Origin: Bacteroidota bacterium
Lineage (GTDB): Bacteria; Bacteroidota; Bacteroidia; Bacteroidales; JACABE01
Direction: 5' to 3'
DNA length: 64,000 nt
Assembly: GCA_026391675.1 (NCBI GenBank)
Contig: JAPLDQ010000035.1
Location: 1-64,000 of the forward strand
Below, piece after piece: positions 36,601-56,296 of the stretch (position 1 is the first letter of the stretch; every line of letters begins with the position of its first letter). Position numbers and translations under genes: made by a program. The notes beneath the pieces are model-generated. The model was not told the origin of the DNA and ran no database searches. It saw only the letters and a program-made list of their open reading frames with translations.

Positions 36601-39600
36601 AAAAGAAATTGATTACATTGGAACATCCCCCGTCAAGATAGTTTGGAGCCGCTTTTCCCGGAGTGCAAATCCCAATAGGTGGATTGCCAAAGAATGAATT
36701 AGGAATAACAGCTGATAAATGATTTTGGTCAATTAAGGTTGTTATCAAGGTATCTTCTCTGAAAGTAATTTTTGATTGAGAAGTAATATAGTTAGCTGTC
36801 ACGTGTAATGTAAATGCTGGAACAGTATCCCCTAATGTTAAGCCTGTTGGAATATTATCAATTGAAATAAGTTCAGGAAATGGAGCTGCAAGCGTTCTGA
36901 TTGCTGAATCAGCATTTACCAATCCGTAACCGGACAAATAATCAAAACCTGAAGTGTACATATCGGTTGCTGAACTGGTGAGTATATTCCGTAGCTGTGT
37001 TGGACTTAAATTTGTACCGTAATATTTTTGTTTAGCCTGAAGAAGTAATGCTGCAATGCCGGCAGCATGAGGAGCTGCAGCAGATGTTCCATAGAAATTA
37101 GGATTGCCATCTCCGCCAGGGAATAGCGGAAGATCTAAATCCGGTCCACCAAGCTGAACGGATGTATTGCCACCATTAGGTGCGCATAAATCAGGTTTCT
37201 GACGTGCAACACCATATGTAAGGGTACCACCTATTGATGAGAAAGATGCTTTGGTTGGAGGATTTACACCAAATGCAGGTGTATTTGAATAAAGTACAGC
37301 TCCTGTAGTTATAGCTCCAAGTGCATTGGCCTGACCAACAATGGTAGAATTTCCCTGATTATATTCATTTATTACAAAACTATTGGCAGCAGATGGAGTC
37401 CTGAAAACTATATATTTGAAGTGAACATTGCTTCCGTTTCCTGAAGTACGACATATTAAAATATTTGCTGATGTTGGTTGAGTTACATTAAACGGCATAA
37501 CTTCTATAGGATCTCCTCCAATATTATTTCGGTTGAATCCGAAAAGTGTAACACCATTATTATAAGTAAGATAAATATCAAGATCATTTGCTGTGCCGGA
37601 AGAAGTAGAGCCTAAGGAATAAAAATCATCCTCCCATTGAAGTACAATCAGATAATTGCCCGGGAGAAGTGAGATACTCTGGAAACAATCAATAACAGCA
37701 GGATTAGTATTAAAATCATGTGCAGTACCAACTATTGTTCCCGGCGCCGGAACAGGATTATAAATTCCTTCATAAGATAAATTCCCATAATTACCGGCAG
37801 AAGTAAAATAGGTAACACCTGAGTCAGCTACAGCGTTCACAGCCTGTGCAATGATTCCATCACTAAAAAACGGTTCAGTAATATAAGTAATATCATCCAC
37901 AATAACATTGCATCCCCTTTCATGCTGAAGTTTCCTGATGTTTTGTGCCATATTACCAGCACTGATAAATCCGGTTGCAAATGCAAGTTTCGCCTTTGGA
38001 GCTACATCATGAACTATCTGCAGCATGGCCCTTCCTTCATCCGATTGTATTCCATATGGATATTCTTTCAAAATATCTACAGGAATATGATACACTGCAT
38101 CAGTATCAGGATATTCAATTCCGGGCAGATTCCCATTTTGTACATCATTCAAAGCAGGATTACCCATTATTGTATTATAACTATTGGATATAACACCCAC
38201 TTTAATTCCTGATCCGTCAAGATGAAATCCATTGCGTGCTAAATTCGATTTCTGAGCAACATCACCCAATGAATAAATGCTACCAGCAGGAATAGGACGG
38301 AAAACCGGCCGGACATGATTGATTAAATTAAGACCTGTAGTAATATTCAAATTATTTAAGGCCGGTAGATTATTTATGTTAACAAACACTGTAATAATTC
38401 TACTGCCTGATCCATTGTCAATAGTATCAGTAAGATTGATATTAAAAGGAGGCAGTACTAATTTATTCAATAACTGCTGACGCATACCTTCCACGTAAAC
38501 AATATCAACCAATACCTGACAATTATTATTGATAATAAACATTTCGAAACCAGCAGTTGAACAACTATCAGGGGTAGAGTTTTGATAAATCGAAGTAAGT
38601 TCAGATCCGATAATGCTATCAGCTTTCCCACTGACAGGTGGATTATATCCAGGCTGAATACATGGAATAAATGTTACTAATGCAGTATCAGAAGCTGAAC
38701 ACAATGTTGAAGGATTAGTAACTTTAAGAATAAAACTTCCTTGAATATTAATAGTTGGAGTAGCGGTATTAGAATCTGCTGAAATATTCCCTCCATTGCC
38801 TGCTGTCCAATGGAATAATGCTCCATTAGTGGAAGATGATCCGCTAAGCTGAATGCTTGGAGTAGAACAATCCAGCTGACCATCCAATCCAGCATTTACA
38901 TTGGGCAATGGATTTACAGTAACAATAACCTGATCAGTGTTGACACAGGATCCATTCGTTACTGTAAGTGTATAGGTTGTTGTTCCCGGACTTGAAGAAG
39001 TAACTATAGGATTAGAAATAGTACTGTTGTTTAATCCTGTTGTTGGTAACCAACTATAGGTATTTACTGATACAGGCGTTGAACCTATTACCGCACTGCC
39101 ACCTGAACAGAAATTTACATCAGAACCTGCATTTGCAACAGGAGGAGTGCATTCTGAAAATGCAGAATAAATAATCTTAACATCACTTTTAAGTTTAACA
39201 CGAGTACGGCTGTAAAAACTCCCAATATATTGGTTTGAACCTGATCCCCAACCTAAAAGAATGGCAGCATTATACGCCATAACTGTCCCATAAAATTTAA
39301 TATTATTGCTTGAACTGTTACCATCATCAATAGTAAATGCATCCGTTTCACTATGTGATGTTGAACCTGAACCATGTACTTCCCAATAAATCCTAGAAGC
39401 ACTTCCTCCATTAATCATTGAAGTACTCAGTTTCTCCATTATTGCATCTCCATAAACATAAATTTTAAATACGGCAGTTGTTTGATTCTGGAAATTATAT
39501 ATAATATTATTATAATCATTTAAATTAAATGAATTAAAAACATATATTCCCGGCCCATTTAATGTAATTGTTTTATTTCCACTAAGGATAACATTATTAT

Positions 39601-40219
39601 AAATGCCAGGATTTATTGATTGTGAGGAAGTTATGTTTGATGTTCCCTGAGGTATAGCAGGAAAAGTAGTTGCTACAGGAAAAGATGGCAGTACAGGAAA
39701 AGATGGTATACCAATGATTTCACCTAAAGAAGGAACAGGACCTGAGTAAGTTGTTCCTGAAGGATGAGTCAGGGGACCATGCACAGATCCGTTATGTATA
39801 TTAATGTTTCCATTTACATCAATTATACCACCCAAAACTGCACTATTGCCAACAGAAAGAATTGTACCACTTAAAACTTGTGAATTTGCAGCAGTGATTC
39901 TGCCACTTACTGAATTTGAATTATCAAGTATAACTTTTCCTCCACTATAAATGGGAGTAGAAAGATTGTTATTATCATTTGCTTGTATAAGAGAGTAACT
40001 ACCTATAATTCCACCACTGATTGTAGTTGAAGAACCCATAATAACGCCATAACCGTATGAACCCGGAGTTGTCGTACCTGTACCTCCGTTGCCGGAGAAT
40101 ATTACATAATCTTTCAACTGCGTTTGTTGTGCAGTTGATATTTGTGAACACAGCATCAGCATGATAAATGCAAATGCATTAATCACAAAAGAACGTGATA
40201 AAAGTGATAGCTGTTTCAT
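33626..40219 (-). CDS. Giant T9SS surface protein: ice-binding-like, subtilase-like, MBG domains
   Basis: This 2197-residue secreted protein begins with a signal peptide (1-30). Residues 31-355 resemble the DUF3494 ice-binding fold (SGGIIGSYSLIQAND, YGTVMAYNAAILLG). Two PKD/Ig-like domains follow (about 356-520). A subtilisin-like domain (670-1110) has SAGN (Asn810) and GTSAAAPHAAGIAALL (Ser1046), but Asn679 where catalytic Asp is expected and Glu728 (DEGRAM) where His is expected. MBG-type domains (about 1211-1656) carry ARAGVN hexapeptide repeats. A beta-helix-like part (1658-1775, NTNDAGTGSLRNAV) and a T9SS sorting tail complete it. It is probably an adhesin or matrix protein rather than a standard protease. 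It is monocistronic with a terminator. Confidence 0.88.
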   Translation of the reverse strand: MKQLSLLSRSFVINAFAFIMLMLCSQISTAQQTQLKDYVIFSGNGGTGTTTPGSYGYGVIMGSSTTISGGIIGSYSLIQANDNNNLSTPIYSGGKVILDNSNSVSGRITAANSQVLSGTILSVGNSAVLGGIIDVNGNINIHNGSVHGPLTHPSGTTYSGPVPSLGEIIGIPSFPVLPSFPVATTFPAIPQGTSNITSSQSINPGIYNNVILSGNKTITLNGPGIYVFNSFNLNDYNNIIYNFQNQTTAVFKIYVYGDAIMEKLSTSMINGGSASRIYWEVHGSGSTSHSETDAFTIDDGNSSSNNIKFYGTVMAYNAAILLGWGSGSNQYIGSFYSRTRVKLKSDVKIIYSAFSECTPPVANAGSDVNFCSGGSAVIGSTPVSVNTYSWLPTTGLNNSTISNPIVTSSSPGTTTYTLTVTNGSCVNTDQVIVTVNPLPNVNAGLDGQLDCSTPSIQLSGSSSTNGALFHWTAGNGGNISADSNTATPTINIQGSFILKVTNPSTLCSASDTALVTFIPCIQPGYNPPVSGKADSIIGSELTSIYQNSTPDSCSTAGFEMFIINNNCQVLVDIVYVEGMRQQLLNKLVLPPFNINLTDTIDNGSGSRIITVFVNINNLPALNNLNITTGLNLINHVRPVFRPIPAGSIYSLGDVAQKSNLARNGFHLDGSGIKVGVISNSYNTIMGNPALNDVQNGNLPGIEYPDTDAVYHIPVDILKEYPYGIQSDEGRAMLQIVHDVAPKAKLAFATGFISAGNMAQNIRKLQHERGCNVIVDDITYITEPFFSDGIIAQAVNAVADSGVTYFTSAGNYGNLSYEGIYNPVPAPGTIVGTAHDFNTNPAVIDCFQSISLLPGNYLIVLQWEDDFYSLGSTSSGTANDLDIYLTYNNGVTLFGFNRNNIGGDPIEVMPFNVTQPTSANILICRTSGNGSNVHFKYIVFRTPSAANSFVINEYNQGNSTIVGQANALGAITTGAVLYSNTPAFGVNPPTKASFSSIGGTLTYGVARQKPDLCAPNGGNTSVQLGGPDLDLPLFPGGDGNPNFYGTSAAAPHAAGIAALLLQAKQKYYGTNLSPTQLRNILTSSATDMYTSGFDYLSGYGLVNADSAIRTLAAPFPELISIDNIPTGLTLGDTVPAFTLHVTANYITSQSKITFREDTLITTLIDQNHLSAVIPNSFFGNPPIGICTPGKAAPNYLDGGCSNVINFFSSSTVKDTVLIVADNKTKHYGEKLPVFNSTVTVNGHSLAEAGLTLTDLGLDSIHYTLPTGVNSLSNTGKYFIDPGAGPFSVGLTELYVYIFITHSNYSDYARPSPSLLTIDKMPLQIIPLNDTIYYGDKIDGKAFHFNYIYDDSNILPGEKTAFLNSLSAEHQSQMTNAVALVDARVGVNSLGNPVRYLNDSDLVDLSFLVSARAGVNARAGVNARVGVNGIVYETTLIVDFAVESVFDYKEDPNDTKLERARAGVNARAGVNARAGVNARAGVNARVGVNGVELNIGGSGLINSTDTSGNSNGNVAIIIDSTDYLAALNGDDTLQTYYSVNMITGYTVGTWAIVPGPLLSNNFNITFGLGHITILPAIINVKANDKEVQFGVPPVYNDSIYCYKYDDNFDSVFSGIITHSPPSNSQISVGIHTIIPSGLTLKHPSNYIINFINGILKVNSCNYVVTNTNDAGTGSLRNAVANTCNNGIITFADNLNNQTISLTSGSVTIDKNITLNNKNHTNGLTISSNGNIFMINSGKVLTLCDSTKITVIGNIQNNAGVSGFVLNSGSSFIYNSCNLPVTAKRYLSNVWHLFGSPFVKNSGAMLANLTPAGGITLMMPYNNGIGWGTTTTSSLFQFTPTVGFAVKPSISFTASLTGTLFCNTLSPAFDYYVSLVYNGTSSLQSWNLVANPFTSYLNWNLLGKTSLNTTLYLWDNNLCPGCTPVPNGSFMRTYNSSSNIGVPANSTPYIAPMQGFFVKANYTNPKITFPLSARTHTTSTYYKENSATEILVRLRIDNDEGSDELAICKNENASLDFETYDSEKLFGDLAVEIYSQAAGGEKLVINTINTCNTVIPLGIKGIAGKKAKLTAFALESGEQVFLEDRLKSKMISLSENSTYNFEFPGNEITGRFFIRFSKINTPLTNSDVKVFKNNEELNIVAQTGEEIQQIEVFTINGSCVFKTSSVNSNMFITKLDLTAGIYLVRIKTSIATQNYKLNWK
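35756..35848. repeat. 18-base tandem repeat encoding ARAGVN, array 1
   Basis: Five tandem 18-base units (the plus strand reads as ACTCCGGCACGGGCATTT-like units) lie inside the giant gene at residues 1458-1488. They encode ARAGVN four times and then ARVGVNG. Units differ by silent changes, and the array is markedly more GC-rich than its surroundings. Confidence 0.9.
35939..35995. repeat. 18-base tandem repeat encoding ARAGVN, array 2
   Basis: Three units encode residues 1409-1427 (ARAGVN twice, then ARVGVNG). A single related unit, ARVGVN, lies at 36062-36079. Arrays 1 and 2 are separated by about 30 unrelated residues. Confidence 0.88.
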
Positions 40220-44585: not shown

Positions 44586-45368
44586 ATGGAATGGAGGAAA
44601 AATAGTATAGATTCAGAGCTGAAGGCTTTTTTAGACGAAAAGGTAACTCAATATAATACCCCAAATTTCATCGAAAATGATCCGATAAGCATTCCTCACC
44701 GCTATTCGTTAAAAGAAGATATCGAAATCGCAGGTTTTTTAGCTGCCAGCATTTCATGGGGAAACCGTAAAGTAATTGTTCAGAACGGACACCGTATGCT
44801 GGATTTACTTGGTGAAAGTCCTTTTGACTATGTAATGTCTGCAAATACTACTGATTTAAAAAGACTGGAAAATTTCGTTCACCGTACCTTCAATGGTGAA
44901 GATTTTAGTTTTTTTATTAAAGGTTTAAAAAATATTTATTCCAATCATAACGGGATAGAAAGCATTTTTTATAAAAATTCAACGACTGATAGTTTACAAC
45001 CAGCAATCAGCGAGTTTAAGAAGAAGTTTTTCGAAATTTCGCATCCTGAAAGGACTTGCAAGCACATTTCAGATCCTGAAAGGGGTTCTGCTGCAAAAAG
45101 AATTAATATGATGTTAAGATGGTTTGTGCGTTATGATAAAAATGGTGTGGACCTTGGTATCTGGAAAACATTAAAACCGTCACAGCTGTCTTGTCCATTA
45201 GATATACATTCGGGAAATATTGCCAGAAAATTTGGCTTATTATACCGGAAACAGAATGATGCAATGGCACTTAAGGAACTTGACTACGCCCTCCGTATAC
45301 TCGACATAAATGATCCGGTTAAATATGATTTTGCTTTGTTTGGCTTAGGGATTTTTGAAAAATTCTGA
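44586..45368 (+). CDS. TIGR02757/DUF2400 family protein
   Basis: This 260-residue cytosolic protein has strong family signatures: NDPISIPHRYS near residue 32, DIEIAGFLAASISWGNRK near 46, LDLLGESPFDYV near 73, RINMMLRWFVRYD near 170, CPLDIHSGNIARKFGL near 200. The family is widespread in Bacteroidota and some other phyla, and its biochemical function is not established to my knowledge. ATG start. It converges on the DUF4159 gene with a 17-base gap. Confidence 0.92.
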   Translation: MEWRKNSIDSELKAFLDEKVTQYNTPNFIENDPISIPHRYSLKEDIEIAGFLAASISWGNRKVIVQNGHRMLDLLGESPFDYVMSANTTDLKRLENFVHRTFNGEDFSFFIKGLKNIYSNHNGIESIFYKNSTTDSLQPAISEFKKKFFEISHPERTCKHISDPERGSAAKRINMMLRWFVRYDKNGVDLGIWKTLKPSQLSCPLDIHSGNIARKFGLLYRKQNDAMALKELDYALRILDINDPVKYDFALFGLGIFEKF

Positions 45369-45385
45369 TTTCAGCAATATTAAAC

Positions 45386-46039
45386 TTATTGGTTGAAAAC
45401 AAATTGCAAAATATTTGTTCCCATTTGCAATGCCTTGGTACGAATGGCGTCAGAATCCTTGTGTACATCCTGATCTTCCCAGCCATCGCCTAAATCGCAC
45501 TCATAAGTATATAAACAAACCAAACGTCCGTTGTAAATCAATGCAAACCCCTGTGGCCGCTTACCGTCATGTTCATGTATTTTAGGCAAGCCATTGGGAA
45601 ACTGATATTTCTGATGATAAATGGGATGGCTGAATGGCAGTTCAATAAAATCAAGTTCAGGAAACACCCTTTTCATTTGTGGCCGTATAAATTTATCCAG
45701 TCCATAGTTATCGTCAATATGTAAAAAGCCACCGCCTTTGAGGTAAATTCTGAGGTTTTCAATATCTCTGTCAGAAAAAACAACATTGCCGTGGCCTGTC
45801 ATATGAATAAAAGGATAATTGAAAAGCTCAGTGCTGCCTACGTCTACAGTAGCATACTCAGGATTTATATTGGTAGTAATATTCTGATTTGCAAATTTTA
45901 TCAAATTTGTTAAAGAAGTAGGATTAGCATACCAGTCGCCACCGCCATTGTACTTTAACAACGCAATTTGATAAGTCGGAGGCTTAAATGAGCCTAATAA
46001 CAGGAGTAATATCAGGTATGTAAAAATTCTTTTTATCAT
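45386..46039 (-). CDS. DUF4159 domain protein
   Basis: This 217-residue protein has an N-terminal signal or anchor (MIKRIFTYLILLLLLGSF) and the DUF4159 body. KYNGGGDWYANPTSL near residue 29, PFIHMTGHGNV near 75, GGFLHIDDNYGLD near 107 and YEYCDLGDGWED-like YECDLGDGWED near 178 are visible. The fold is probably a glutamine-amidotransferase-like Rossmann domain. The family is common in Bacteroidota, function unknown. The ATG shares one base with the rsmE stop, so the two are coupled. Confidence 0.9.
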   Translation of the reverse strand: MIKRIFTYLILLLLLGSFKPPTYQIALLKYNGGGDWYANPTSLTNLIKFANQNITTNINPEYATVDVGSTELFNYPFIHMTGHGNVVFSDRDIENLRIYLKGGGFLHIDDNYGLDKFIRPQMKRVFPELDFIELPFSHPIYHQKYQFPNGLPKIHEHDGKRPQGFALIYNGRLVCLYTYECDLGDGWEDQDVHKDSDAIRTKALQMGTNILQFVFNQ

Positions 46040-46740
46040 TATTCATTCAGTAAATTAATGGTATGACAAGCAACAACACCAGCAGTTTCGGTACGTAAAC
46101 GCGAATTTCCCAGACTGACTGGCTGATAATTTCTTTCTATGGCATTTTTAATTTCAGTTGTACTAAAATCACCTTCAGGACCTATCAGTATCAAGGCATT
46201 TTTCCCTTTAGGATAAGCTGATTGCAGGCTTATTTTTTCATCTTCTTCGCAATGTGCAATACATTTAAAAGCCTGATAGTCTTTTTTAAGAAAACTTTGC
46301 AGTTTTACAGCATCATTTAATACCGGATGATAAGCTTTTAAAGATTGTTTCATGGCAGAAGTAATAATTTTATGCAATCGTTCTGGTTTAACAATATTAC
46401 GTTCGGAATGTTCGCAAAAAACAGGAGTAATTTCATCAATCCCAATTTCTGTGGCTTTTTCGAGAAACCACTCAAAACGATCAATATTTTTGGTTGGTGC
46501 TATGGCAATATGCAGCTGAAAATTTCTTTTACCAAAATTGGGTATAGTTTCGATTATTTCGGCAACACAAGCTTTTGGATCAGCAGTAATTAAATGTGCT
46601 TTAAATAAATTTCCCTTGCCATCCGTTAAATGCAGCTGGCTGCCTTCTTTCAATCGCAATACCCTTATACAATGCATGGATTCTTCTTTGTCCAGTGTAT
46701 AGGTGGCAGAAGTAATATCCGGTGTATAAAATAATTGCAT
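46039..46740 (-). CDS. rsmE: 16S rRNA (uracil-1498-N3)-methyltransferase
   Basis: This SPOUT-class SAM methyltransferase modifies U1498 of 16S rRNA. The 233-residue protein has an N-terminal PUA-like domain (HCIRVLRLKEGSQLHLTDG) and the C-terminal knot with IALIGPEGDFS-type LILIGPEGDFSTTE near residue 181 and VSLGNSRLRTETAGV near 208. ATG start with a TATCTTTG promoter element 31 bases upstream. It is translationally coupled to the DUF4159 gene. Confidence 0.95.
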   Translation of the reverse strand: MQLFYTPDITSATYTLDKEESMHCIRVLRLKEGSQLHLTDGKGNLFKAHLITADPKACVAEIIETIPNFGKRNFQLHIAIAPTKNIDRFEWFLEKATEIGIDEITPVFCEHSERNIVKPERLHKIITSAMKQSLKAYHPVLNDAVKLQSFLKKDYQAFKCIAHCEEDEKISLQSAYPKGKNALILIGPEGDFSTTEIKNAIERNYQPVSLGNSRLRTETAGVVACHTINLLNE

Positions 46741-46873: not shown

Positions 46874-49800
46874 TTACATTGAACGTGCAGGTGCGCCAAT
46901 ATAAGTCGTATTTGTTGTCAATGTTTCTCCTTTCATCAGGACTGACAAGTTATCAAGTTTTGCTCCATCTTCCATCACAGAATCATATAATACCACAGAC
47001 ATGCCACCAACGCTGCATTCTTTCCCTATATCAACATAAGACATTTTCATAACCCTGTCTTCAAAAAGATGCGTTTGTATAGTGCAGTTATCGTTCAGGG
47101 CAGAGTAATCACCAACTTTCACAAGATCAAATTCTGTAATTTGAGTAGTATAAATACAAGTACGTTTTCCAATTTTACATCCCAGTAACCAAAGCGGGAA
47201 TTTAATAAAAGGAGTTCCTGTTAGAACATTGATTGAAAACAAAACACCAAAATTCTCATACAAACCGGTTACCAATTCACTTCTCCACACAAAACCACTC
47301 CATAAAGGCTTATTAGACGGCCGGTAACGGCCGATAACAATCCATTTAAATATTGCCATGATAAAAAACCCGATAAAACTGGCAGCTATGTATAGAAGTG
47401 GAAATACGAAAAGTAAGGGAAACAAATCTAAATCAACCTGTAAATAACTGGTAATGTTGGTAATCATGGATGCCATAGTAATAAACATGGTTGCTGGCAG
47501 GCATACCCTGAAAAACTCTATAAAATAGCGTAATGCAAAAAGTTTACGGCTTGGCTTGTACGTTCTTTTTTCGGAAAATTCTGTATTAATATCTCTTTTC
47601 GGCAGATAAACGGCTGGAGAGCCAAACCAGGAAGAACCATCAGTTGCAGGAAGATCTTCGGTTTTCATTTTAGATAAAACCCCTACCAGCACTTCATTTC
47701 CCAATTTAGTTCCCGGGCTTAAAACTGCACTGTTGCCTACAAAAGTTCTGTTTCCAATATAGGTTTTTTCAATAGTTATATATCCGTATCTTACATGCGA
47801 AGCTCCCACAGATACAGAATCTGCGAGAAAACATTCATCACCGGCAACCAATAAATCAGGTGAAATAAATTCAACGGTTGAAATCTCAGAACGTTTACCT
47901 ATTTTCACCCCCAGCATTTTAAACCAATACTGAAGATAAAGTGTGGTGTAAAGTGTCCCTATGACCTGTAAACTTAACCTCATCAGTTGATCAAAAAACC
48001 ATTTTCTAAAATAAAAAAGACTGCCAATCGGATACTTTCCTTCTTTAATACTTCCCAACAACACCCATTTTAGTATGGCAATAATTAAAGAAAGTATTAT
48101 TACAAAAGACATTGCTACAAAAAGGGTTAATGCCAGAAATCGATAATCTTCATTGGAATAATCAATATGAGTAATAAGCATCATACCGGGAAAATATGCT
48201 ATCATGGTAATCAATGGAAACAGAAAAACACCAATCATATAAAGTGTAAAATGATTTTCTTTCCATAATTTTAATGTTTTAACTTTTGGGTTTATTCCAT
48301 GTTTCTGGGCAGGAGAACCTTGCCAGTTTTCGTTTTTAGGAATACATCCACCATCAGGAAGCAAAGAAAGATCTTCCAGTGAGGAATTTCTTTCCATCTT
48401 AGTATTTTCAGAGATGCAGCAACGGGTACCGACAAAACAATTATTTCCGATTTCAATACTTCCGATATGAAGATAACCATCTTTAATTGTAAAGCCTTTT
48501 ATATGGGTATCGGTACAAATACTTACATTATTGCCAATGCTGAGCAAATCAAAAGCTGCTGCTGTATGTGAATTGATATAAGTATTTACCCCGATTTTAG
48601 CACCGAGTAATCTATAGAAATTAGTAATGATAGGTGTTCCTGCAAAATAACTTGCCGGAGATATGCCAATAACTTTATCCACTATCCAGAATCGGAAATA
48701 ATACAAACTCCATAACTTATATTTACCTGCTTTTATCTTTCCGATTACCATCCATTTAAAAGCTATTGCAAATAATGTAAGTGTTGGTAATAAAAGGAAG
48801 TAAGTTAAAAGCATGATTAACAATGAATCAATTACACCATAATCAGCATGATAATAATAAGCATAAACAAAAAACGGCCCTAACCATTCAATACCAAATA
48901 AAAAGGATAGAAAAATCAAAGATACGCCCTGAAAAAACCAACAACTGTAATAACTCAATCTTGATGGCTTGTAAAAATCATGAATTTCTTTTTTCTTATT
49001 GCTCTGATTTGTATATTCAGTTTCTAAATGCGTTGCAAGATCTTTTAAAATTGGGAAATTATAAATATCAATAACTGATAAATTATTAAACATCGGATGT
49101 TTTCTCAAATCAGAAGCCACATGAGCAGCCAGTAATGAATGTCCTCCCAAATCATTGAAAAAATTATCATCCATCGAAATATCCTCGCGCTTAAAATGCT
49201 TTTTAAGAATTTCATGCAATTCTTTTTCAAGCGGTGTCTCAGGCAAAATACATTCTCTTTGCTGGTCAGCAGCAAGAGGTGTTTGTGGTTGTGGGAGTCT
49301 GGAACGATCTATCTTTGAGCTGGAAGTCATAGGTAATGCATCCACCTCATCAAGTGTGGAAGGTATCATATAATAAGGCAATTTAGCACGGAGTAATTCT
49401 GCAAGTTCTTCCCTGTTTAAAATTTCTCCCGACTTAACTACCAAGTAAGCAGCTAATTGCTGAGTATTTTTATCCAGTGTAACCGCTGTAGCTTTAACAG
49501 CTTTATATGATAAAATAAGACCTTCTATTTCGGAAAGCTCAACCCTGAATCCCCTAACTTTTACCTGTGCATCTATTCTTCCGACATATTCTATTTCTCC
49601 TGCTGCAGTATATTTTGCAATATCTCCTGTTTTATAAAACCTTAGAGGAAATTCTGTAAATTTTGAAGTTTCAATAAATTTTTCTTGGTTCATTTCCGGA
49701 CGGTTGAGATAACCTCTGGCAACACATTCACCACCAATATATATTTCACCTTCCTGTCCAACATCCACAGCATTCATCTGTTCATCAAGTATCATCACAA

Positions 49801-50842
49801 TATACTGTGGCATAGGAAAACCAATTGTAACAGACTGATGAGGTTCTAACACCTTATATGTTGCAATAACGGCAGCTTCTGTAGGACCGTAAGTATTGTA
49901 AACTTTTCTTCCGTTTTTACACCAGCGATGGGCTAAATCAGGAGGACAAACTTCTCCGCCAAAAATTAAGATTTTTAAACCTGGAATATCTTCCTCAACC
50001 ATTGATAACAAAGTAGGTGCACAGGATAAAAAACTAATTTCAAGTTCATGTAAAATGCCTGAAAATTGCTCCCCTGAACGCATAATTTCAAATGTACCTA
50101 CAACTACTGTTGCTCCTACTGAAAAAGGTAACCAGATTTCTTCAACAGAGGCATCAAAAGATACTGAAAAACCCTGAAGTGCTCTGTAAGTATGATTTAT
50201 AGGATATATTTCCTGGGCTGAACAGATATATGTGACTACATTTCTGTGTTCCAGCAGAACACCTTTAGGTTTACCGGTTGTTCCGGATGTATATATGATA
50301 TAACAAAGGTTAGCTGATGTTAATGCAGGATTTCCAATTTTGGTGACAGGAAAATTAGTGAGTAGCGGAAAATCTTTATCTGTATTAAAAATTTTACGGT
50401 TAACCAGCTTATCATTTATTCTGTTTAAAATAGTATCAGATGAAATAAGCAATAATGCAGCAGAATCTTCCATGATAAAATCGACTCTTTCGCCCGGTAT
50501 TTCAGGGTCAAGAGGAATATATGCACCACCTGCCTTTAATACACCTAACATTGCAATATAAACAAAAGCGGATCTGTTTAACATTATTGCAACTTTTTGC
50601 TCAGCACCTACTCCACTTTCAGTTAAATAATGAGCTAATTGATTGGCTTGATGCTCAACTTCAGCATAGCTTAGTCGCCTGCCATTTTCCTCAATTGCAA
50701 TATGATCAGGATATAGGTTTGCTGTTTGTTCAAAAAGTTCATGTAATAATGTATTTTTTGATATATTCTTATAAACCGAGATACCAGTCCATTCTTCAAA
50801 ATTTATTTGAACAGCTGTTTTATCGATTGGCTGAGATTGCAT
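46874..50842 (-). CDS. Pls/PosA-type membrane NRPS, poly-lysine synthetase-like
   Basis: This 1322-residue protein has a complete adenylation domain (about 35-520: YTSGTTGKPKG at 184-194, YNTYGPTE, YKTGD, Lys510). A carrier domain follows, with LGGHSLL (phosphopantetheine Ser569). There is no condensation or thioesterase domain. Instead, three modules each have a TM pair (about 633-700, 864-930 and a third pair near 1130-1210) followed by a left-handed beta-helix hexapeptide domain. This order and length match epsilon-poly-L-lysine synthetase Pls of Streptomyces. The pocket residues, aligned by eye to GrsA, read D-A-E-S-I-G-T-V-I-K, close to the lysine code. It is predicted to make an isopeptide-linked cationic oligomer at the inner membrane. 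Product unproven. Confidence 0.88.
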   Translation of the reverse strand: MQSQPIDKTAVQINFEEWTGISVYKNISKNTLLHELFEQTANLYPDHIAIEENGRRLSYAEVEHQANQLAHYLTESGVGAEQKVAIMLNRSAFVYIAMLGVLKAGGAYIPLDPEIPGERVDFIMEDSAALLLISSDTILNRINDKLVNRKIFNTDKDFPLLTNFPVTKIGNPALTSANLCYIIYTSGTTGKPKGVLLEHRNVVTYICSAQEIYPINHTYRALQGFSVSFDASVEEIWLPFSVGATVVVGTFEIMRSGEQFSGILHELEISFLSCAPTLLSMVEEDIPGLKILIFGGEVCPPDLAHRWCKNGRKVYNTYGPTEAAVIATYKVLEPHQSVTIGFPMPQYIVMILDEQMNAVDVGQEGEIYIGGECVARGYLNRPEMNQEKFIETSKFTEFPLRFYKTGDIAKYTAAGEIEYVGRIDAQVKVRGFRVELSEIEGLILSYKAVKATAVTLDKNTQQLAAYLVVKSGEILNREELAELLRAKLPYYMIPSTLDEVDALPMTSSSKIDRSRLPQPQTPLAADQQRECILPETPLEKELHEILKKHFKREDISMDDNFFNDLGGHSLLAAHVASDLRKHPMFNNLSVIDIYNFPILKDLATHLETEYTNQSNKKKEIHDFYKPSRLSYYSCWFFQGVSLIFLSFLFGIEWLGPFFVYAYYYHADYGVIDSLLIMLLTYFLLLPTLTLFAIAFKWMVIGKIKAGKYKLWSLYYFRFWIVDKVIGISPASYFAGTPIITNFYRLLGAKIGVNTYINSHTAAAFDLLSIGNNVSICTDTHIKGFTIKDGYLHIGSIEIGNNCFVGTRCCISENTKMERNSSLEDLSLLPDGGCIPKNENWQGSPAQKHGINPKVKTLKLWKENHFTLYMIGVFLFPLITMIAYFPGMMLITHIDYSNEDYRFLALTLFVAMSFVIILSLIIAILKWVLLGSIKEGKYPIGSLFYFRKWFFDQLMRLSLQVIGTLYTTLYLQYWFKMLGVKIGKRSEISTVEFISPDLLVAGDECFLADSVSVGASHVRYGYITIEKTYIGNRTFVGNSAVLSPGTKLGNEVLVGVLSKMKTEDLPATDGSSWFGSPAVYLPKRDINTEFSEKRTYKPSRKLFALRYFIEFFRVCLPATMFITMASMITNITSYLQVDLDLFPLLFVFPLLYIAASFIGFFIMAIFKWIVIGRYRPSNKPLWSGFVWRSELVTGLYENFGVLFSINVLTGTPFIKFPLWLLGCKIGKRTCIYTTQITEFDLVKVGDYSALNDNCTIQTHLFEDRVMKMSYVDIGKECSVGGMSVVLYDSVMEDGAKLDNLSVLMKGETLTTNTTYIGAPARSM

Positions 50843-51008: not shown

Positions 51009-52874
51009 GTGCCGAAAACAGATATATTACTCATTACACCTCCTTTTATACAGCTGAATACGGCTTATCCTGCTACTGCATGCCTGAAAGCTTATCTGCA
51101 AAATAAAGGATTTAAAGCAGCACAACTTGATCTGAGTATTTTGTGCATACTCGAACTGCTTTCTTCAAAGGGTTTACAATCAATATTTGAAACAGCAGAA
51201 ACTAATAAATGTACTGCCAATGCAAAAAAGATATTCTCTCAAAAAGATGAGTATATCCGGCATATTGAAGCTGTAATTGCTTTTTTACAAGGGAAAGACA
51301 GCAGTTTTGCATATTCAGTAAATAATGGAATATTACCCAAAGCAGGAAGATTCAATATTCAGCAGGATCTGGAATGGCATTTCGGAACCGATAGCGTAAA
51401 TGACAAAGCAAGATTTTTAGCAACTTTATTCATTGAAGATATTGGTGATTTTATTACTGAATGTGTTGATCATCGCTTTGGATTCAGCCGCTATGCGGAG
51501 CAAATCGGATTAGAAGCCATAAATTATCAGACGATAGTTGATGAATTAAAAGCAGATACGCTTATTTCGACAATTATGTGTAAATTGCTGAATAACGCAA
51601 TTCAGGAATTTCAGCCTAAAGTTATTGGCTTTACCATTCCTTTTCCCGGAAATTTATTAATGGCATTAAAATCAGCAGAATTTATCAGGAAAAATTATCC
51701 GCAAATTAAAATTGTTATTGGCGGAGGATTTGTCAGTACTGAATTAAGGGAACTTAATGAGCCAAAGCTGTTTGATTTGGTCGATTTTGTTTGCCTGGAC
51801 GATGGCGAACTTTGTCTGGAATTAGTATTGGAACATATCATTAATGCAAATCCGGAACTTGCAAGAACCTTTACTTTGGAAAATGGCAACGTTGTATACA
51901 ATAACAACACAAAAAGAAAAGATATTGCTCATAAAGATTGCGGAACACCTGATTTTGAAGGATTACCACTGCAGGATTACATTTCGGTAACAGAAACTAC
52001 CAATCCTATGCATAATTTGTGGAGCAACGGGCGTTGGAATAAAATGGCATTGGCCCATGGTTGTTACTGGCATCGCTGTTCGTTTTGTGATGTTTCACTG
52101 GATTATATCAAACGTTACAGCGCAGCAGATGCAGGTATTTTGTGCGACAGAATTGAAGCAATTATTAAACAAACGGCACATCATGGATTTCACTTTGTTG
52201 ATGAAGCTGCATCTCCTGTTTTATTGAGAAAATTAGCAGAAGAAATCCTGCATCGTAAGCTCAGCCTGAGTTGGTGGACAAATATCCGTTTTGAATCCGG
52301 TTTTACTGCAGAATTATGTGAATTACTGGCAAAATCAGGATGTATAGCAGTTTCCGGAGGACTCGAGGTAGCTTCTGACAGATTACTGGACAAAATGGAA
52401 AAGGGTGTAAGTATTGAACAGGTATCAAAGGTAACAGCATCATTCCAACAAGCAGGAATAATGATACATGCATATCTGATGTATGGCTTTCCTACCCAGA
52501 CAGCGCAGGAAACGATAGATTCACTGGAGATTGTACGTCAGTTGTTCAGTTTAAAGTTATTACAAAGTGCTTTCTGGCATCGTTTTGCCATGACAATACA
52601 TAGTCCGGTTGGCATGCATCCTGAGAAATATGGCGTTGAACGGATTCCATATCCTGAAAATGTTTTTGCTCAAAATGGATGTTTTCATATTGATAAAACC
52701 GGATGTGATCATGAAAAATTCGGAGCAGGTTTAAATAAAGCATTGTATAATTATATGCATGATAATGGATTGGAAAATAATTTTAAGGATTGGTTTGACT
52801 TTAAAGTTCCTCAAACTCAGATTCCACCCAATTATATATTTAAAATAATCAGAAAAAAAAATAGAAAAAATTGA
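51009..52874 (+). CDS. B12-binding-type radical SAM protein
   Basis: The protein has 621 residues. The N-terminal Rossmann-like region (DILLITPPFIQLNTAYPA, then VIGFTIPFPGN and IVIGGGFVS near residue 240) resembles cobalamin-binding domains but lacks an obvious DxHxxG. The radical SAM barrel follows. Its cluster motif is Cys352-x4-Cys357-x2-Cys360 (GCYWHRCSFCD), one residue longer than the canonical Cx3Cx2C. GGLEVASDRLLDKMEKG and LMYGFPTQT near 455-500 are typical SAM-barrel segments. The start is GTG at 51009, directly before KTDILLITPP. It is divergently transcribed from the Pls-like NRPS gene and may modify its monomer or product. The reaction is unknown. Confidence 0.87.
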   Translation: MPKTDILLITPPFIQLNTAYPATACLKAYLQNKGFKAAQLDLSILCILELLSSKGLQSIFETAETNKCTANAKKIFSQKDEYIRHIEAVIAFLQGKDSSFAYSVNNGILPKAGRFNIQQDLEWHFGTDSVNDKARFLATLFIEDIGDFITECVDHRFGFSRYAEQIGLEAINYQTIVDELKADTLISTIMCKLLNNAIQEFQPKVIGFTIPFPGNLLMALKSAEFIRKNYPQIKIVIGGGFVSTELRELNEPKLFDLVDFVCLDDGELCLELVLEHIINANPELARTFTLENGNVVYNNNTKRKDIAHKDCGTPDFEGLPLQDYISVTETTNPMHNLWSNGRWNKMALAHGCYWHRCSFCDVSLDYIKRYSAADAGILCDRIEAIIKQTAHHGFHFVDEAASPVLLRKLAEEILHRKLSLSWWTNIRFESGFTAELCELLAKSGCIAVSGGLEVASDRLLDKMEKGVSIEQVSKVTASFQQAGIMIHAYLMYGFPTQTAQETIDSLEIVRQLFSLKLLQSAFWHRFAMTIHSPVGMHPEKYGVERIPYPENVFAQNGCFHIDKTGCDHEKFGAGLNKALYNYMHDNGLENNFKDWFDFKVPQTQIPPNYIFKIIRKKNRKN

Positions 52875-52941
52875 TTCTTGATTTTATTAACATCAGAAAG
52901 CTAAAATTTGTATATTAAATTTATAAACAAATTATTATTTA

Positions 52942-53002
52942 GCCCGTAGTGCTTTAATATCAATAATTAGAACACATAATAATAAGTATTTGCCCTAGGG
53001 CA
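52942..53002. repeat. REP-like hairpins upstream of the transposase
   Basis: A GCCCGTAGTGC motif (52942-52952) and the perfect palindrome TGCCCTAGGGCA (52991-53002) lie just before the transposase ATG. They are related in composition to TGCCC-GTTA-GGGCA in the blocks downstream. Confidence 0.65.
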
Positions 53003-53020
53003 TTAACTAAACTACGCACC

Positions 53021-53482
53021 ATGCCAAACACTTACACACAACTCTACACTCATTATGTATTTGCAGTACAAAACAGACAATCACTAATAAATGAAAAATG
53101 GCAGACTGAGCTATATAAATATATGAATGGTATTATTGAACAACAAGGACATAAACTATATGTAATAAATGGAATGCCCGACCATGTTCATGTTCTTGTT
53201 AGTATTCATCCTAATCAGTCACCATCAGATTTGATGTATAATATAAAAAGAAGTACTTCATTATGGATAAATGGACAGAGATTAGTAAAAGGTAAATTTT
53301 CATGGCAAGAGGGTTTTGGAGGTTTTTCTTATGGTAAGTCTCAAATTCCAACTATTTTGAAATATATTAAAAATCAGCAACAGCATCATGAAAAGAAAAC
53401 ATTTTATGAAGAATATCTGGAATTTTTAAAGGCGTTTGAAATTGAATTTGACGAAAAATATGTTTTTAAATCAATTTATTAA
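53021..53482 (+). CDS. tnpA: IS200-like HUH transposase, RAYT-type
   Basis: This 153-residue Y1 transposase of the IS200/IS605 type has the HUH motif PDHVHVLV near residue 54 and the catalytic Tyr probably in GGFSYGKSQ near 107. The tail KAFEIEFDEKYVF is family-typical. There is no TnpB. Hairpins with three- or four-base loops flank it on both sides, the arrangement of REP-associated tyrosine transposases, so it is better seen as a domesticated RAYT than as an intact insertion sequence. It appears intact (ATG start, no frameshift). Confidence 0.88.
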   Translation: MPNTYTQLYTHYVFAVQNRQSLINEKWQTELYKYMNGIIEQQGHKLYVINGMPDHVHVLVSIHPNQSPSDLMYNIKRSTSLWINGQRLVKGKFSWQEGFGGFSYGKSQIPTILKYIKNQQQHHEKKTFYEEYLEFLKAFEIEFDEKYVFKSIY

Positions 53483-53662
53483 ATGTTAATTCCCTACGGG
53501 AAATACAGATGATGATGGAATTATTTTCTATTAATATTAATCTCCTACGGAGAAATCGTTAAAAAAAGAAATAACATTTTCTTTTGCCCGTTAGGGCATA
53601 AATATTAATAAAAACAAGATGTAAGTTTTTTATTTTTGTTCGTAGGACATTAACAAAAAAAA
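53483..53662. repeat. REP-like block A
   Basis: This non-coding block follows the transposase stop. It holds four dyads: TCCC-TAC-GGGA (53491-53501), TCTCC-TAC-GGAGA (53541-53553), TGCCC-GTTA-GGGCA (53585-53598) and GTTC-GTA-GGAC (53638-53648). The same series recurs in block B. Confidence 0.85.
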
Positions 53663-53719
53663 TTTAAGGTTTTTGAATTTGAATTTGATGAAAAATATTT
53701 ATTTAAACCAATTGATTAA
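53663..53719 (+). pseudogene. Duplicated 3' end of the transposase gene
   Basis: These 57 bases encode FKVFEFEFDEKYLFKPID and a stop, clearly homologous to the C-terminus of the intact transposase (LKAFEIEFDEKYVFKSIY). Together with block B it is a duplicate of the unit tnpA-tail plus block A. Confidence 0.85.
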
Positions 53720-53890
53720 TTATTAATTCCCTACGGTAAATTATGCACAGGATAGAATTATTTTCTATTAATATTATTCTCCTACGGAGAAATCGTTAAA
53801 AAATGAAATAACGTTTTTTTTGCCCGTTAGGGCATAAATATTAATAAAAACAAGATGTATGTTTTTATTATTGTCCGTAGGACATTAACA
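53720..53890. repeat. REP-like block B
   Basis: This is a copy of block A. It has a degenerate CCCTACGG motif (53729-53736), TCTCC-TAC-GGAGA (53778-53790), TGCCC-GTTA-GGGCA (53821-53834) and GTCC-GTA-GGAC (53873-53883). The last dyad is a better palindrome than its partner in block A. Together with 53483-53719 this explains the gene-free stretch before the DUF2185 gene. Confidence 0.85.
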
Positions 53891-53908
53891 TAAAATAAAT
53901 TTAAAATT

Positions 53909-54238
53909 ATGAAAAAGAACAATATGATTCATAAAGAAGAACAGGAAAAGGAATCCATGGGTTTTTGTCTGGTTTCGAACTTAATTGGCTTCGAAGGCAA
54001 AAAAGTTGGCTATATGTATCGCGAAGAAATCAGTGAAGATGCTGAAAACGACAGTGGCTGGCGTTTTTTAGCCGGTACTGAAAGTCAGGAATATGTTGAT
54101 GATGAAAAAAACTCTAAGGTTTTTGAAGTGGAAACCATAATAGATTTTGACCCCACTGTCAAAAAATATCTTCATTTGCCGGAAGGTACAGAATTAGAAA
54201 GAGTTGAAGGCAGTGATGATTTTAAAATTATTGAATAG
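53909..54238 (+). CDS. DUF2185 domain protein
   Basis: This 109-residue cytosolic acidic protein has LVSNLIGFEGKKVGYMYREE, the family-typical segment DSGWRFLAGTESQEYVDD near residue 50, and DPTVKKYLHLPEGTELERV at the end. DUF2185 proteins are small and sometimes annotated as immunity-like (Imm33-type), and function is unproven. No toxin gene is adjacent, so an immunity role has no support here. The start is ATG at 53909, right after REP-like block B. Confidence 0.85.
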   Translation: MKKNNMIHKEEQEKESMGFCLVSNLIGFEGKKVGYMYREEISEDAENDSGWRFLAGTESQEYVDDEKNSKVFEVETIIDFDPTVKKYLHLPEGTELERVEGSDDFKIIE

Positions 54239-54270
54239 TAAAAGTCAATGGGATACTTCAAGTCGACACG

Positions 54271-54308
54271 AGTCATCAGATGACTAATTGTAAGTCAGCC
54301 GCTGACTT
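54271..54308. repeat. Pair of REP-like hairpins after ruvB
   Basis: AGTCAT-CAG-ATGACT (54271-54285) and AAGTCAG-CCG-CTGACTT (54292-54308) are two short stems with three-base loops. The second touches the ruvB stop codon. They lie between convergent genes and may act as a bidirectional transcript end. Confidence 0.7.
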
Positions 54309-55333
54309 TATTCAAATAAATCCTTTTGCTTATTCACTTTAATTTTACCCAGATGCTTGTATGCCATTTCGGTTACTTCCCTTCCTCTTGGTGTGCGCAT
54401 CATATAGCCTTCCATAATTAAAAAAGGTTCGTATACTTCTTCAATTGTTCCTGCATCTTCACCCACAGCGGTTGCTATTGTTGTTAAACCAACAGGTCCT
54501 CCTTTAAATTTATCAATAATGGTAGATAATATCTTATTATCCATTTCATCCAGACCATATTTATCAACATTCAGTGCATCAAGCGCATATTGAACTATCG
54601 GCAGGTCAATACTTCCACTGCCTTTAATCTGAGCAAAATCCCTGACCCTTCTTAAGAGCAAATTGGCTATACGTGGTGTTCCGCGACTACGACGGGCAAT
54701 TTCACCGGCTGCTTCTTTTACGATTCCAATTTTTAATATATCTGCTGAACGGATAATAATTTTTTCCAATACCTGAGCATCGTAATACGATAAACGCGAA
54801 TTAATACCAAATCTGGAACGCAAAGGAGCTGTTAAAAGTCCCGAACGGGTAGTTGCACCTATTAAGGTGAAAGGATTTAAAGCAATCTGGACACTTCTGG
54901 CGTTAGGGCCAGTTTCTATCATAATATCAATCTTGTAATCTTCCATTGCTGAATAAAGATATTCCTCCACAACAGGTGATAAACGATGAATTTCATCAAT
55001 AAAAAGAACATCGTTTTCTTCCAGATTGGTTAATAATCCTGCCAGCTCACCGGGTTTATCCAGTACCGGACCTGATGTTATTTTTATATTGACATTTAAT
55101 TCGTTGGCGATAATATATGAAAGTGTAGTTTTGCCAAGCCCCGGAGGACCATGCAATAATACATGATCGAGTGCTTCGCCTCTTTGTTTGGCAGCCTGAA
55201 CAAAAATCTTTAAATTCTCTACAACCTGAAATTGTCCTGCAAAACTGTCAAAATATGAAGGACGTAAAGCTTTTTCATATTCTTTTTCGACAGGATTTAG
55301 CTGTTCACCACTGGCATTTAAATTCTCGTTCAT
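54308..55333 (-). CDS. ruvB: Holliday junction branch migration helicase RuvB
   Basis: This is the AAA+ motor of RuvAB, which drives branch migration in recombination. It has 341 residues. Walker A is [10 protein letters not shown] (61-70), Walker B is FIDEIHRL (111-118), sensor 1 is in LIGATTRSG near residue 158 and the arginine finger lies near APLRSRFG. The C-terminal winged helix has [13 protein letters not shown] and [20 protein letters not shown] start. ruvA and ruvC are not in the window. Confidence 0.97.
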
Positions 55334-55450
55334 ATTAATTGTTAAAAAAAAATCAGTTTTTGAAACATTTTTTTTAAAAAAATGTATTTTTAGGTTAAAA
55401 AATATATAATTTAGCTAAATTAAATAAATAATCTATTAAAACGGAAAGTT

Positions 55451-56296
55451 ATGAAAGAAATTATTGTAGCAATTGATTTCTCTAAAGGATCTTTATATGC
55501 TCTAGAGCTTGCAATAGACATTGCTAATAAAACCAGTGCTAATATAATGATGGTATGGGTAGATAATGAAACAGATACTGATACTGAATTCCTGGCATTA
55601 GGTAGTGAAGCAAGAAATGATGCAAAATTACATATAGAAAAGATTCAGAAGGAATATCAACCGAAATTAGTGAACAGCACACTAAGCTATAAACTCAGAA
55701 AAGGAAAAGTTTACAGCGAAATTGCTAATCAGGCTAAATATAATGATGCCGATTTAATAATTGCCGGTACTCATGGTGCTTCAGGGTTTGAAAAAATGTG
55801 GATGGGTAGCAATGCATTCAGAATTGTTACTTATGCTCCTTGTCCTGTAATTACAATAAGATATGGCTTCAACTTTAAGAAAAAATTAGAAAAAATTATA
55901 GTTCCTATCGACAGTTCAGCTGATACCCGTCAGAAAGTTCCTTTTGCCTGCAGAATGGCAAACTATTTTGGTGCTGAAATTCATATTTTAGGATTATACA
56001 CTACTACATTAAAAGCAATAAGACGTAAAGTTGATACTTATGTTGAACAAGTTGAAAAATACCTGGGAGATAATAAGGCAAAATATGTTACGAGTTTTCT
56101 GGACGCTGATAACACGACTACAACAACTATCGAGTATGCACAACAAATTAATGCTGACCTCATTGTTATTATGACAGAACAGGAAAAAACAGCCGCCAAT
56201 TTCTGGCTTGGACCTTATGCACAGCAAATGGTAAACAACAGTCCTATTCCTGTTTTAAGCATACAACCTGTCGAAATTAATAATGCTGCCAGATAA
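55451..56296 (+). CDS. Universal stress protein, tandem UspA domains
   Basis: This 281-residue protein has two UspA-like domains. The first has IIVAIDFSKGSLYALELA at the N-terminus, DLIIAGTHGASGFEKMWMGSNAFRIV near residue 103 and CPVITIRYG near 136. The glycine-rich loop is better kept than in the 28080-28919 protein. The second has IIVPIDSSADTRQKV near 153. It is probably a cytosolic nucleotide-binding stress protein. It lies five bases upstream of the SPOR gene and likely shares its transcript. Confidence 0.9.
   Translation: MKEIIVAIDFSKGSLYALELAIDIANKTSANIMMVWVDNETDTDTEFLALGSEARNDAKLHIEKIQKEYQPKLVNSTLSYKLRKGKVYSEIANQAKYNDADLIIAGTHGASGFEKMWMGSNAFRIVTYAPCPVITIRYGFNFKKKLEKIIVPIDSSADTRQKVPFACRMANYFGAEIHILGLYTTTLKAIRRKVDTYVEQVEKYLGDNKAKYVTSFLDADNTTTTTIEYAQQINADLIVIMTEQEKTAANFWLGPYAQQMVNNSPIPVLSIQPVEINNAAR

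What the first reader, a model, noticed from the sequence alone, without database searches (positions are those of the whole stretch)
46874..50842. Poly-lysine-synthetase-like NRPS in a Bacteroidota genome
One protein carries adenylation, carrier, and three TM-pair plus beta-helix modules, with no condensation or thioesterase domain. Established knowledge: this is the architecture of epsilon-poly-L-lysine synthetase (Pls) from Streptomyces, and 1322 residues is almost the same length. Such enzymes make homo-oligomers of basic amino acids with antimicrobial activity. In this phylum the product is, as far as I know, undescribed. Inference: the locus makes an isopeptide-linked cationic polymer at the inner membrane.
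Basis: partly seen in the sequence, partly recalled or inferred. Interest (0 to 1): 0.82.

Follow-up and report, generated by a model that had tools for sequence, protein, structure and literature searches.

The report
Lysine-polymer synthetase gene in Bacteroidota
This gene very probably encodes an enzyme that links lysine into a positively charged, side-chain-bonded polymer; it belongs to a known enzyme family, but I found no description of such a product from this bacterial phylum.

Summary
Window 46874-50842 (-) encodes a 1322-aa protein with adenylation, carrier and TIGR02353 (Pls/PosA) terminal domains (599.5 bits; cut-off 423.1). No condensation or thioesterase domain was found. The modelled C-terminal half (pLDDT 89.6) shows three helix pairs, each followed by a beta-helix. 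The reading is supported and sharpened. The A-domain pocket is DAESIGTVIK: 9 of 10 positions match a Streptomyces Pls whose A domain aligns end to end with the solved epsilon-poly-L-lysine synthase 7wew. PosA's ornithine pocket (DMEHNGTVSK) and a diaminobutyrate-cluster pocket (DFECLSAVTK) differ clearly. Predicted monomer: L-lysine; likely product: epsilon-linked poly/oligo-L-lysine. No product has been shown. The gene stands alone: in a congener its two neighbours are 149 bp apart without it. It sits in a fully supported clade (25 of 82 tree rows), all Bacteroidota by label or kinship, including Bacteroides neonati and Segatella paludivivens. NCBIfam already names the family, so this is a new member of a known kind; no Bacteroidota product turned up in the literature searches.

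The parts
46874..50842 (-). Pls/PosA-type NRPS-like synthetase, 1322 aa
   Evidence: ORF; TIGR02353 599.5 bits, cut-off 423.1
49313..50734 (-). Adenylation domain (residues 37-510), pocket DAESIGTVIK, predicted L-lysine
   Evidence: Pfam; pocket, mapping checked on the A. baumannii PosA-type enzyme
49025..49216 (-). Peptidyl carrier domain (residues 543-606) with LGGHSLL phosphopantetheine site
   Evidence: PF00550 25 bits, cut-off 20.8; motif
46886..48931 (-). TIGR02353 membrane-bound terminal (polymerisation) domain
   Evidence: AlphaFold2 model
48746..48952 (-). Helix pair 1 (about residues 631-699), predicted membrane-spanning
   Evidence: model; hydropathy
48059..48259 (-). Helix pair 2 (about residues 862-928), predicted membrane-spanning
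   Evidence: model; hydropathy
47336..47548 (-). Helix pair 3 (about residues 1099-1169), predicted membrane-spanning
   Evidence: model; hydropathy one search shows only the second of its two helices
47042..47077 (-). QTHLFEDRVMKM motif in the third module; His1258 invariant, candidate catalytic residue (inference)
   Evidence: 32 of 32 compared sequences keep Q1256 and H1258 (the broken reference L150 was left out)

Best explanation
A single-gene, membrane-bound homopolymer synthetase. The A domain activates L-lysine with ATP and loads it on the phosphopantetheine arm of the adjacent carrier domain. The arm presents lysyl thioester to the membrane-embedded C-terminal domain, three beta-helix modules in one chain. 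There the side-chain amine of a free or growing chain attacks the thioester, so an epsilon-linked oligo/poly-L-lysine grows without a classical condensation or thioesterase domain and is released at the inner membrane. Shown here: domain order, family membership, lysine-type pocket, carrier site, predicted fold, purifying selection, a phosphopantetheinyl transferase gene in the same genome. Inferred from Pls and PosA: the chemistry, epsilon linkage, polymer rather than single transfer. Unknown: chain length, export across the outer membrane, biological role (competition or biofilm behaviour are the leading guesses).
For: TIGR02353 over cut-off. Pocket DAESIGTVIK in the window. Streptomyces NBC_01454 Pls has DAESIGTVVK; its A domain matches the solved epsilon-poly-L-lysine synthase 7wew over residues 2-508 at 875 bits, and the printed alignment shows the same pocket letters in 7wew; its gene is followed by an M1 metallopeptidase gene, in keeping with the degrading aminopeptidase coupled to pls in S. 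albulus (PMC9223678, passages). The mapping returns DMEHNGTVSK for the A. baumannii enzyme, as published for PosA (PMC10522769, passages). That paper ties Asp at position 1 and Glu at position 3 to diamino substrates and Ala at position 2 to lysine. Q1256 and His1258 kept in 32 of 32. AlphaFold2 model pLDDT 89.6, agreeing with the published description of the PosA model. Own genome has one PF01648 phosphopantetheinyl transferase match over cut-off, in a 228-aa frame. dN well below dS.
Against: No product has been measured from any member of this clade that I know of. The terminal domain is only 27% identical to that of the Streptomyces lysine-type enzyme, so chain length and even linkage are extrapolated. 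Taken as a whole, the window's A domain scores better against gramicidin- and tyrocidine-type A domains (GrsA 1amu 323.5 bits) than against the Pls A domain 7wew (231 bits, best stretch 165-520); the case for lysine rests on the ten pocket residues. Pocket position 9 is Ile where Pls has Val and PosA has a substrate-contacting Ser. No degrading peptidase, exporter or regulator is conserved next to the gene. The hydropathy scan missed one helix of pair 3.
Confidence: 0.77

Rival explanations
1. Same enzyme class but the monomer is another basic amino acid (ornithine, 2,4-diaminobutyrate, 2,3-diaminopropionate, beta-lysine or arginine).
For: Pocket codes predict imperfectly; other family members use these monomers (PMC10522769). 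Four synthetases from other genomes of the window's class carry the ornithine-type pocket, three DMEHNGSVTK and one DMEHNGSVSK.
Against: The window pocket has Ala at position 2 (lysine type), not Met, Phe, Ser or Gly; 71 of 75 complete pockets among the aligned rows differ from it by at most two conservative changes.
Confidence: 0.09
2. The enzyme transfers a single lysine, or a very short chain, to a non-lysine acceptor (lipid, polyol or surface glycan) rather than making a homopolymer.
For: A module of the model resembles hexapeptide O- and N-acetyltransferases such as maltose O-acetyltransferase (best Z 8.2); recombinant Pls makes glycerol and PEG esters of its chain in vitro (PMC9606270, passages).
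Against: The terminal domain scores as the Pls/PosA equivalog domain over cut-off and keeps residues shared with the PosA-type and lysine-type references. Likeness to hexapeptide acyltransferases is described for PosA too, which does polymerise.
Confidence: 0.1
3. An inactive or recently acquired, unused gene.
For: Patchy presence: 4 of 59 relatives and 6 of 395 genomes of the phylum pass the cut-off; an empty site in a congener.
Against: Intact frame, dN about 0.14 to dS about 1.2-1.9 between congeners, host-like base composition.
Confidence: 0.03

Closest known systems
Epsilon-poly-L-lysine synthetase Pls of Streptomyces (solved A domain PDB 7wew; full-length relative L145 of Streptomyces sp. 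NBC_01454)
   Same: Domain order A-PCP-terminal domain, length (1320 aa for L145), pocket identical at 9 of 10 positions, QTHLF.DR motif
   Different: L145 has 31.5% A-domain and 27% terminal-domain identity to the window; no coupled degrading peptidase gene beside the window gene; not in the same branch of the tree, though that branch is long
Delta-poly-L-ornithine synthetase PosA of Acinetobacter baumannii (PMC10522769)
   Same: Architecture, Gram-negative host, Asp1/Glu3 pocket residues, terminal-domain identity 34%
   Different: Pocket is ornithine type (Met at position 2)
Pls/PosA family NRPS as annotated by NCBI (TIGR02353)
   Same: Window is a clear member; plasmid records carry the same product name
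   Different: No characterised member from Bacteroidota was found in the searches made
Diaminobutyrate-cluster synthetase of Streptomyces sp. NBC_01527
   Same: Same family, terminal domain 35%
   Different: Pocket DFECLSAVTK; neighbouring genes would make the monomer (transaminase, aspartate kinase)

Membership tests
Pls/PosA family (TIGR02353) | Terminal domain over the curated cut-off | tested here: met
   599.5 against 423.1 bits
Pls/PosA family (TIGR02353) | A domain plus carrier domain, no condensation or thioesterase domain | tested here: met
   Pfam listing of 7 families
Pls/PosA family (TIGR02353) | Six membrane helices in three pairs, each followed by a soluble beta-helix module | tested here: met
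   AlphaFold2 model, pLDDT 89.6; hydropathy found five of six
Pls/PosA family (TIGR02353) | Asp at pocket position 1 and Glu at position 3 | tested here: met
   D230 and E234
Epsilon-poly-L-lysine synthetase (Pls) | Lysine pocket with Ala at position 2 | tested here: met
   DAESIGTVIK against DAESIGTVVK
Epsilon-poly-L-lysine synthetase (Pls) | Phosphopantetheinyl transferase available | tested here: met
   One PF01648 match over cut-off, 228-aa frame, own genome
Epsilon-poly-L-lysine synthetase (Pls) | Phylogenetic placement with Streptomyces Pls | tested here: inconclusive
   Window lies in a Bacteroidota clade (100 SH-aLRT) away from L145, but L145 is flagged as a long branch and the tree is a quick one
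Epsilon-poly-L-lysine synthetase (Pls) | Coupled polymer-degrading peptidase gene (accessory feature of S. albulus) | tested here: not met
   The eight flanking genes tested (44586-46740 and 51009-56293) are DUF2400, DUF4159, rsmE-type, B12 radical-SAM, transposase, Imm33, RuvB and Usp proteins
Epsilon-poly-L-lysine synthetase (Pls) | Makes epsilon-linked lysine homopolymer | not testable with these tools
   needs enzyme assay and mass spectrometry

The most novel reading that the evidence does not exclude
A lineage of Gram-negative, mostly anaerobic Bacteroidota (lifestyle recalled), including cultured species, makes epsilon-poly-L-lysine with a synthetase clade of its own, carried as a one-gene unit that comes and goes between conserved neighbours, in a phylum that also holds ornithine-type synthetases.
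Probability: 0.55. Interest if true: 0.6.

Novelty: new member of a known kind. Interest (0 to 1): 0.42.

Why it matters
Epsilon-poly-lysine is approved as a food preservative in a growing number of countries (PMC8117764, abstract in the listing) and is known from actinomycetes and an Epichloe endophyte (PMC7179176, abstract in the listing). The PosA abstract says that no polymer of this class had been reported from bacteria other than actinomycetes before PosA, although a 2023 title claims it from Stenotrophomonas and Paenibacillus (PMC10433424, listing only). A lysine-type clade with an almost unvarying pocket in Bacteroidota, with named-strain members, makes two things directly testable: whether these Gram-negatives make such polymers, and what they use them for. 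The clade also gives a diverse alignment of the poorly understood polymerisation domain, with a short list of invariant residues to mutate.

Tried and rejected
A dedicated biosynthetic cluster: rejected. Neighbour clustering over 88 loci and the window gave, besides the synthetase itself, clusters reaching at most 13 and 8 loci; by the start of their members these look like two-component and transporter paralogues, and none is shared by the close clade as a whole. rsmE and DUF4159 recur only in the same genus. Many loci have short flanks, so a distant partner gene could be missed.

The divergent B12 radical-SAM gene (51009-52874) as a tailoring partner: rejected as obligatory. It occurs in 14 of 59 relatives at E 1e-20 and Pls in 4 of 59; only G000 and G003 hold both, G001 and G002 have the radical-SAM gene without Pls, G004 and G010 the reverse. 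A 51% homologue does lie 3.5 kb from a 41%-identical Pls in L127, which I leave unexplained.

Printing the window's own alignment with chain 7wew failed, as other chains ranked higher; it was reached through the Streptomyces relative L145.

A solved structure of the terminal domain: none found by sequence (best hits are gamma-carbonic anhydrases and hexapeptide transferases, E from 5e-8 upward). Fold comparison listed only single-module hexapeptide proteins; that is no evidence that nothing closer exists.

Recent plasmid transfer: no near DNA match in the plasmid collection; base composition is host-like.

Literature searches gave no Bacteroidota product; a Bacteroidetes natural-product survey (PMC9248904, term search only) does not contain lysine, homopoly, isopeptide, TIGR02353, polycation or NRPS-like. 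This library lacks most subscription journals.
Full report
Observation. The window holds a 1322-codon frame at 46874-50842 on the minus strand. NCBIfam places residues 638-1319 in TIGR02353, 'Pls/PosA family non-ribosomal peptide synthetase', at 599.5 bits against a cut-off of 423.1, and residues 58-454 in the amino-acid adenylation domain. Pfam adds a carrier domain at 543-606 and hexapeptide repeats, and lists no condensation or thioesterase domain.

Fold. AlphaFold2 on the window's C-terminal 693 residues, with 39 relatives as alignment, gave pLDDT 89.6 and pTM 0.89: three helix pairs, each followed by short helices and a beta-helix. This agrees with the description of the PosA model in PMC10522769 (section 13 read). 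Foldseek and VIA-align list hexapeptide acetyltransferases for a single module (best Z 8.2, 145 residues, rmsd 2.9), a modest and expected likeness. By sequence alone, no solved terminal domain was found.

Monomer. Pocket positions were set on the window by eye from recalled GrsA motif positions and read in the aligned relatives. The window reads DAESIGTVIK. The mapping was checked on an A. baumannii synthetase, which reads DMEHNGTVSK, exactly the code printed for PosA. A Streptomyces plasmid enzyme followed by an M1 metallopeptidase gene (L145) reads DAESIGTVVK, and its A domain aligns over residues 2-508 with the solved epsilon-poly-L-lysine synthase chain 7wew at 875 bits, with the same pocket letters visible in the alignment. 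In S. albulus a degrading aminopeptidase is translationally coupled to pls (PMC9223678, passages). An enzyme beside diaminobutyrate transaminase and aspartate kinase genes reads DFECLSAVTK. The PosA paper assigns lysine to Ala at position 2, and diamino substrates to Asp 1 and Glu 3. Among 89 aligned rows, 75 had a complete pocket: 62 DAESIGTVIK, 7 DAESIGTVVK, one each DAESVGTVVK and DAESIGSVIK, 3 DMEHNGSVTK and 1 DMEHNGSVSK. The last four come from other genomes of the window's class (L031, L032, L033, L035) and are ornithine-like. The 89 rows include two pairs that look like the same genomes held twice (L002/L061, L003/L129), and the 80 loci are the best of 352 found with patterns taken from the window, so the counts describe relatives of the window and not the whole family. 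Against this reading: as a whole, the window's A domain scores higher against gramicidin- and tyrocidine-type A domains than against 7wew, so the lysine call rests on the pocket residues.

Catalysis. In an alignment of 32 proteins (window, 21 relatives, 10 reference enzymes; the broken reference L150 left out), Q1256 and H1258 of the motif QTHLFEDR in the third module are invariant. That the His is catalytic is inference. The carrier site LGGHSLL is present, and the genome has one PF01648 phosphopantetheinyl transferase match over cut-off, in a 228-aa frame. Some relatives carry such a transferase directly downstream (L004; references L149 and L151) or fused at the C terminus (L110).

Genomic setting. 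The gene lies between an rsmE-type gene with DUF4159 (downstream, same strand) and a divergent B12 radical-SAM gene. The same order occurs in G003 of the same genus at 80% protein identity. In G001, also of the genus, rsmE and one of its two radical-SAM copies are 149 bp apart with no pls between them; the surroundings of the other copy were not fetched. The two ends of this gap match the flanks of the gene in G003: about 40 bases before the radical-SAM start and about 30 bases beside rsmE, by eye; the window's own flanks match only weakly. G001 shows no TIGR02353 match at E 1e-50, though it is a draft at 94% completeness. So one gene was gained or lost here; the direction is not settled. In G002 the radical-SAM gene is present without rsmE in the 1.5 kb upstream, where another frame lies. 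Elsewhere in the close clade the neighbours differ from genome to genome, except for pairs of near relatives. Between the window and G003 dN is about 0.14 and dS 1.2 to 1.9, and G+C at third positions (0.26) lies within the range of seven other genes of the window (0.22 to 0.36).

Distribution. TIGR02353 over cut-off: 4 of 59 relatives and 6 of 395 genomes drawn from the phylum; the weaker matches in 325 of 395 (E 1e-3) are mostly short hexapeptide stretches and do not count. Of 14 control genomes, Corynebacterium glutamicum alone rings at E 1e-50. In a quick tree of 82 rows the window falls in a clade of 25 rows with full SH-aLRT support, sister to two Elusimicrobia sequences: 22 rows labelled Bacteroidota, plus the window, a congener and a same-order genome. 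It includes Bacteroides neonati MS4, Segatella paludivivens DSM 17968, and Paludibacter, Prevotella and Muribaculaceae bins. The same-family genome G004 and the same-order G010 carry members from another part of the tree (41-42% identity). The actinobacterial references sit on long branches, so their order is unsure.

Literature. PMC10522769 (abstract, sections 10, 11, 13, 14 and passages seen) reports homologues in a wide variety of phyla and names ornithine, lysine and other pockets; its main text has no word beginning 'bacteroid'. Its supplementary table could not be read. PMC8117764 (passages) finds Pls homologues only in coryneform actinobacteria within its cheese and skin collections at a 40% identity cut-off. 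PMC9606270 (passages) says that the biological significance of these polymers is unclear. No Bacteroidota product turned up.

Verdict. A genuine, intact, lysine-type Pls/PosA family synthetase. What it works like: epsilon-poly-L-lysine synthetase. What it is a member of: the TIGR02353 family, in a Bacteroidota clade distinct from Streptomyces Pls. The polymer itself remains to be shown.

Noticed in passing
L031, L032, L033, L035 (genomes of the window's class): Four Pls/PosA-type synthetases with the ornithine-type pocket DMEHNGSV[T/S]K, inside the eight-row branch that also holds A. baumannii PosA: a likely second, poly-ornithine, type in the phylum.
   Followed up: partly
window 51009-52874: Divergent B12-binding radical-SAM protein, 621 aa, best but sub-cut-off matches to RiPP C-methyltransferase and PhpK P-methyltransferase models; present in 14 of 59 relatives, independent of Pls.
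   Followed up: partly
L110 6709-11718: Geothrix limicola synthetase of 1670 aa with a phosphopantetheinyl transferase domain fused at its C terminus (residues 1551-1643); other Holophagaceae forms of 1536-1678 aa were not scanned.
   Followed up: partly
L004, L127, L133, L136, L138 N termini: Forms of about 1480-1530 aa carry a roughly 200-residue N-terminal extension that reads like the C-terminal part of a condensation domain (by eye); Pfam gave no hit there in the four of these five that were scanned, L136 not among them.
   Followed up: no
L146 1947-5966: Streptomyces sp. NBC_00060 plasmid enzyme has pocket DSECYGGVTK, the code of the Bdellovibrionales enzyme reported to activate arginine.
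   Followed up: no
L128: Contig labelled Klebsiella pneumoniae carries a synthetase that groups with Verrucomicrobiota and an unclassified proteobacterial bin; probably a mislabelled bin.
   Followed up: no
L082: Partial synthetase at 71% terminal-domain identity on a contig labelled Chitinophagaceae: either the close clade reaches beyond its usual taxa or the bin is mislabelled.
   Followed up: no
window 53021-53482 and 53909-54238: IS200-like Y1 transposase gene and a stand-alone Imm33 immunity-type protein next to the radical-SAM gene; Imm33 also follows it in L061/L154 (one genome) and L156.
   Followed up: no
window 33626-40219: A 2197-aa frame on the minus strand, not analysed beyond its base composition.
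   Followed up: no
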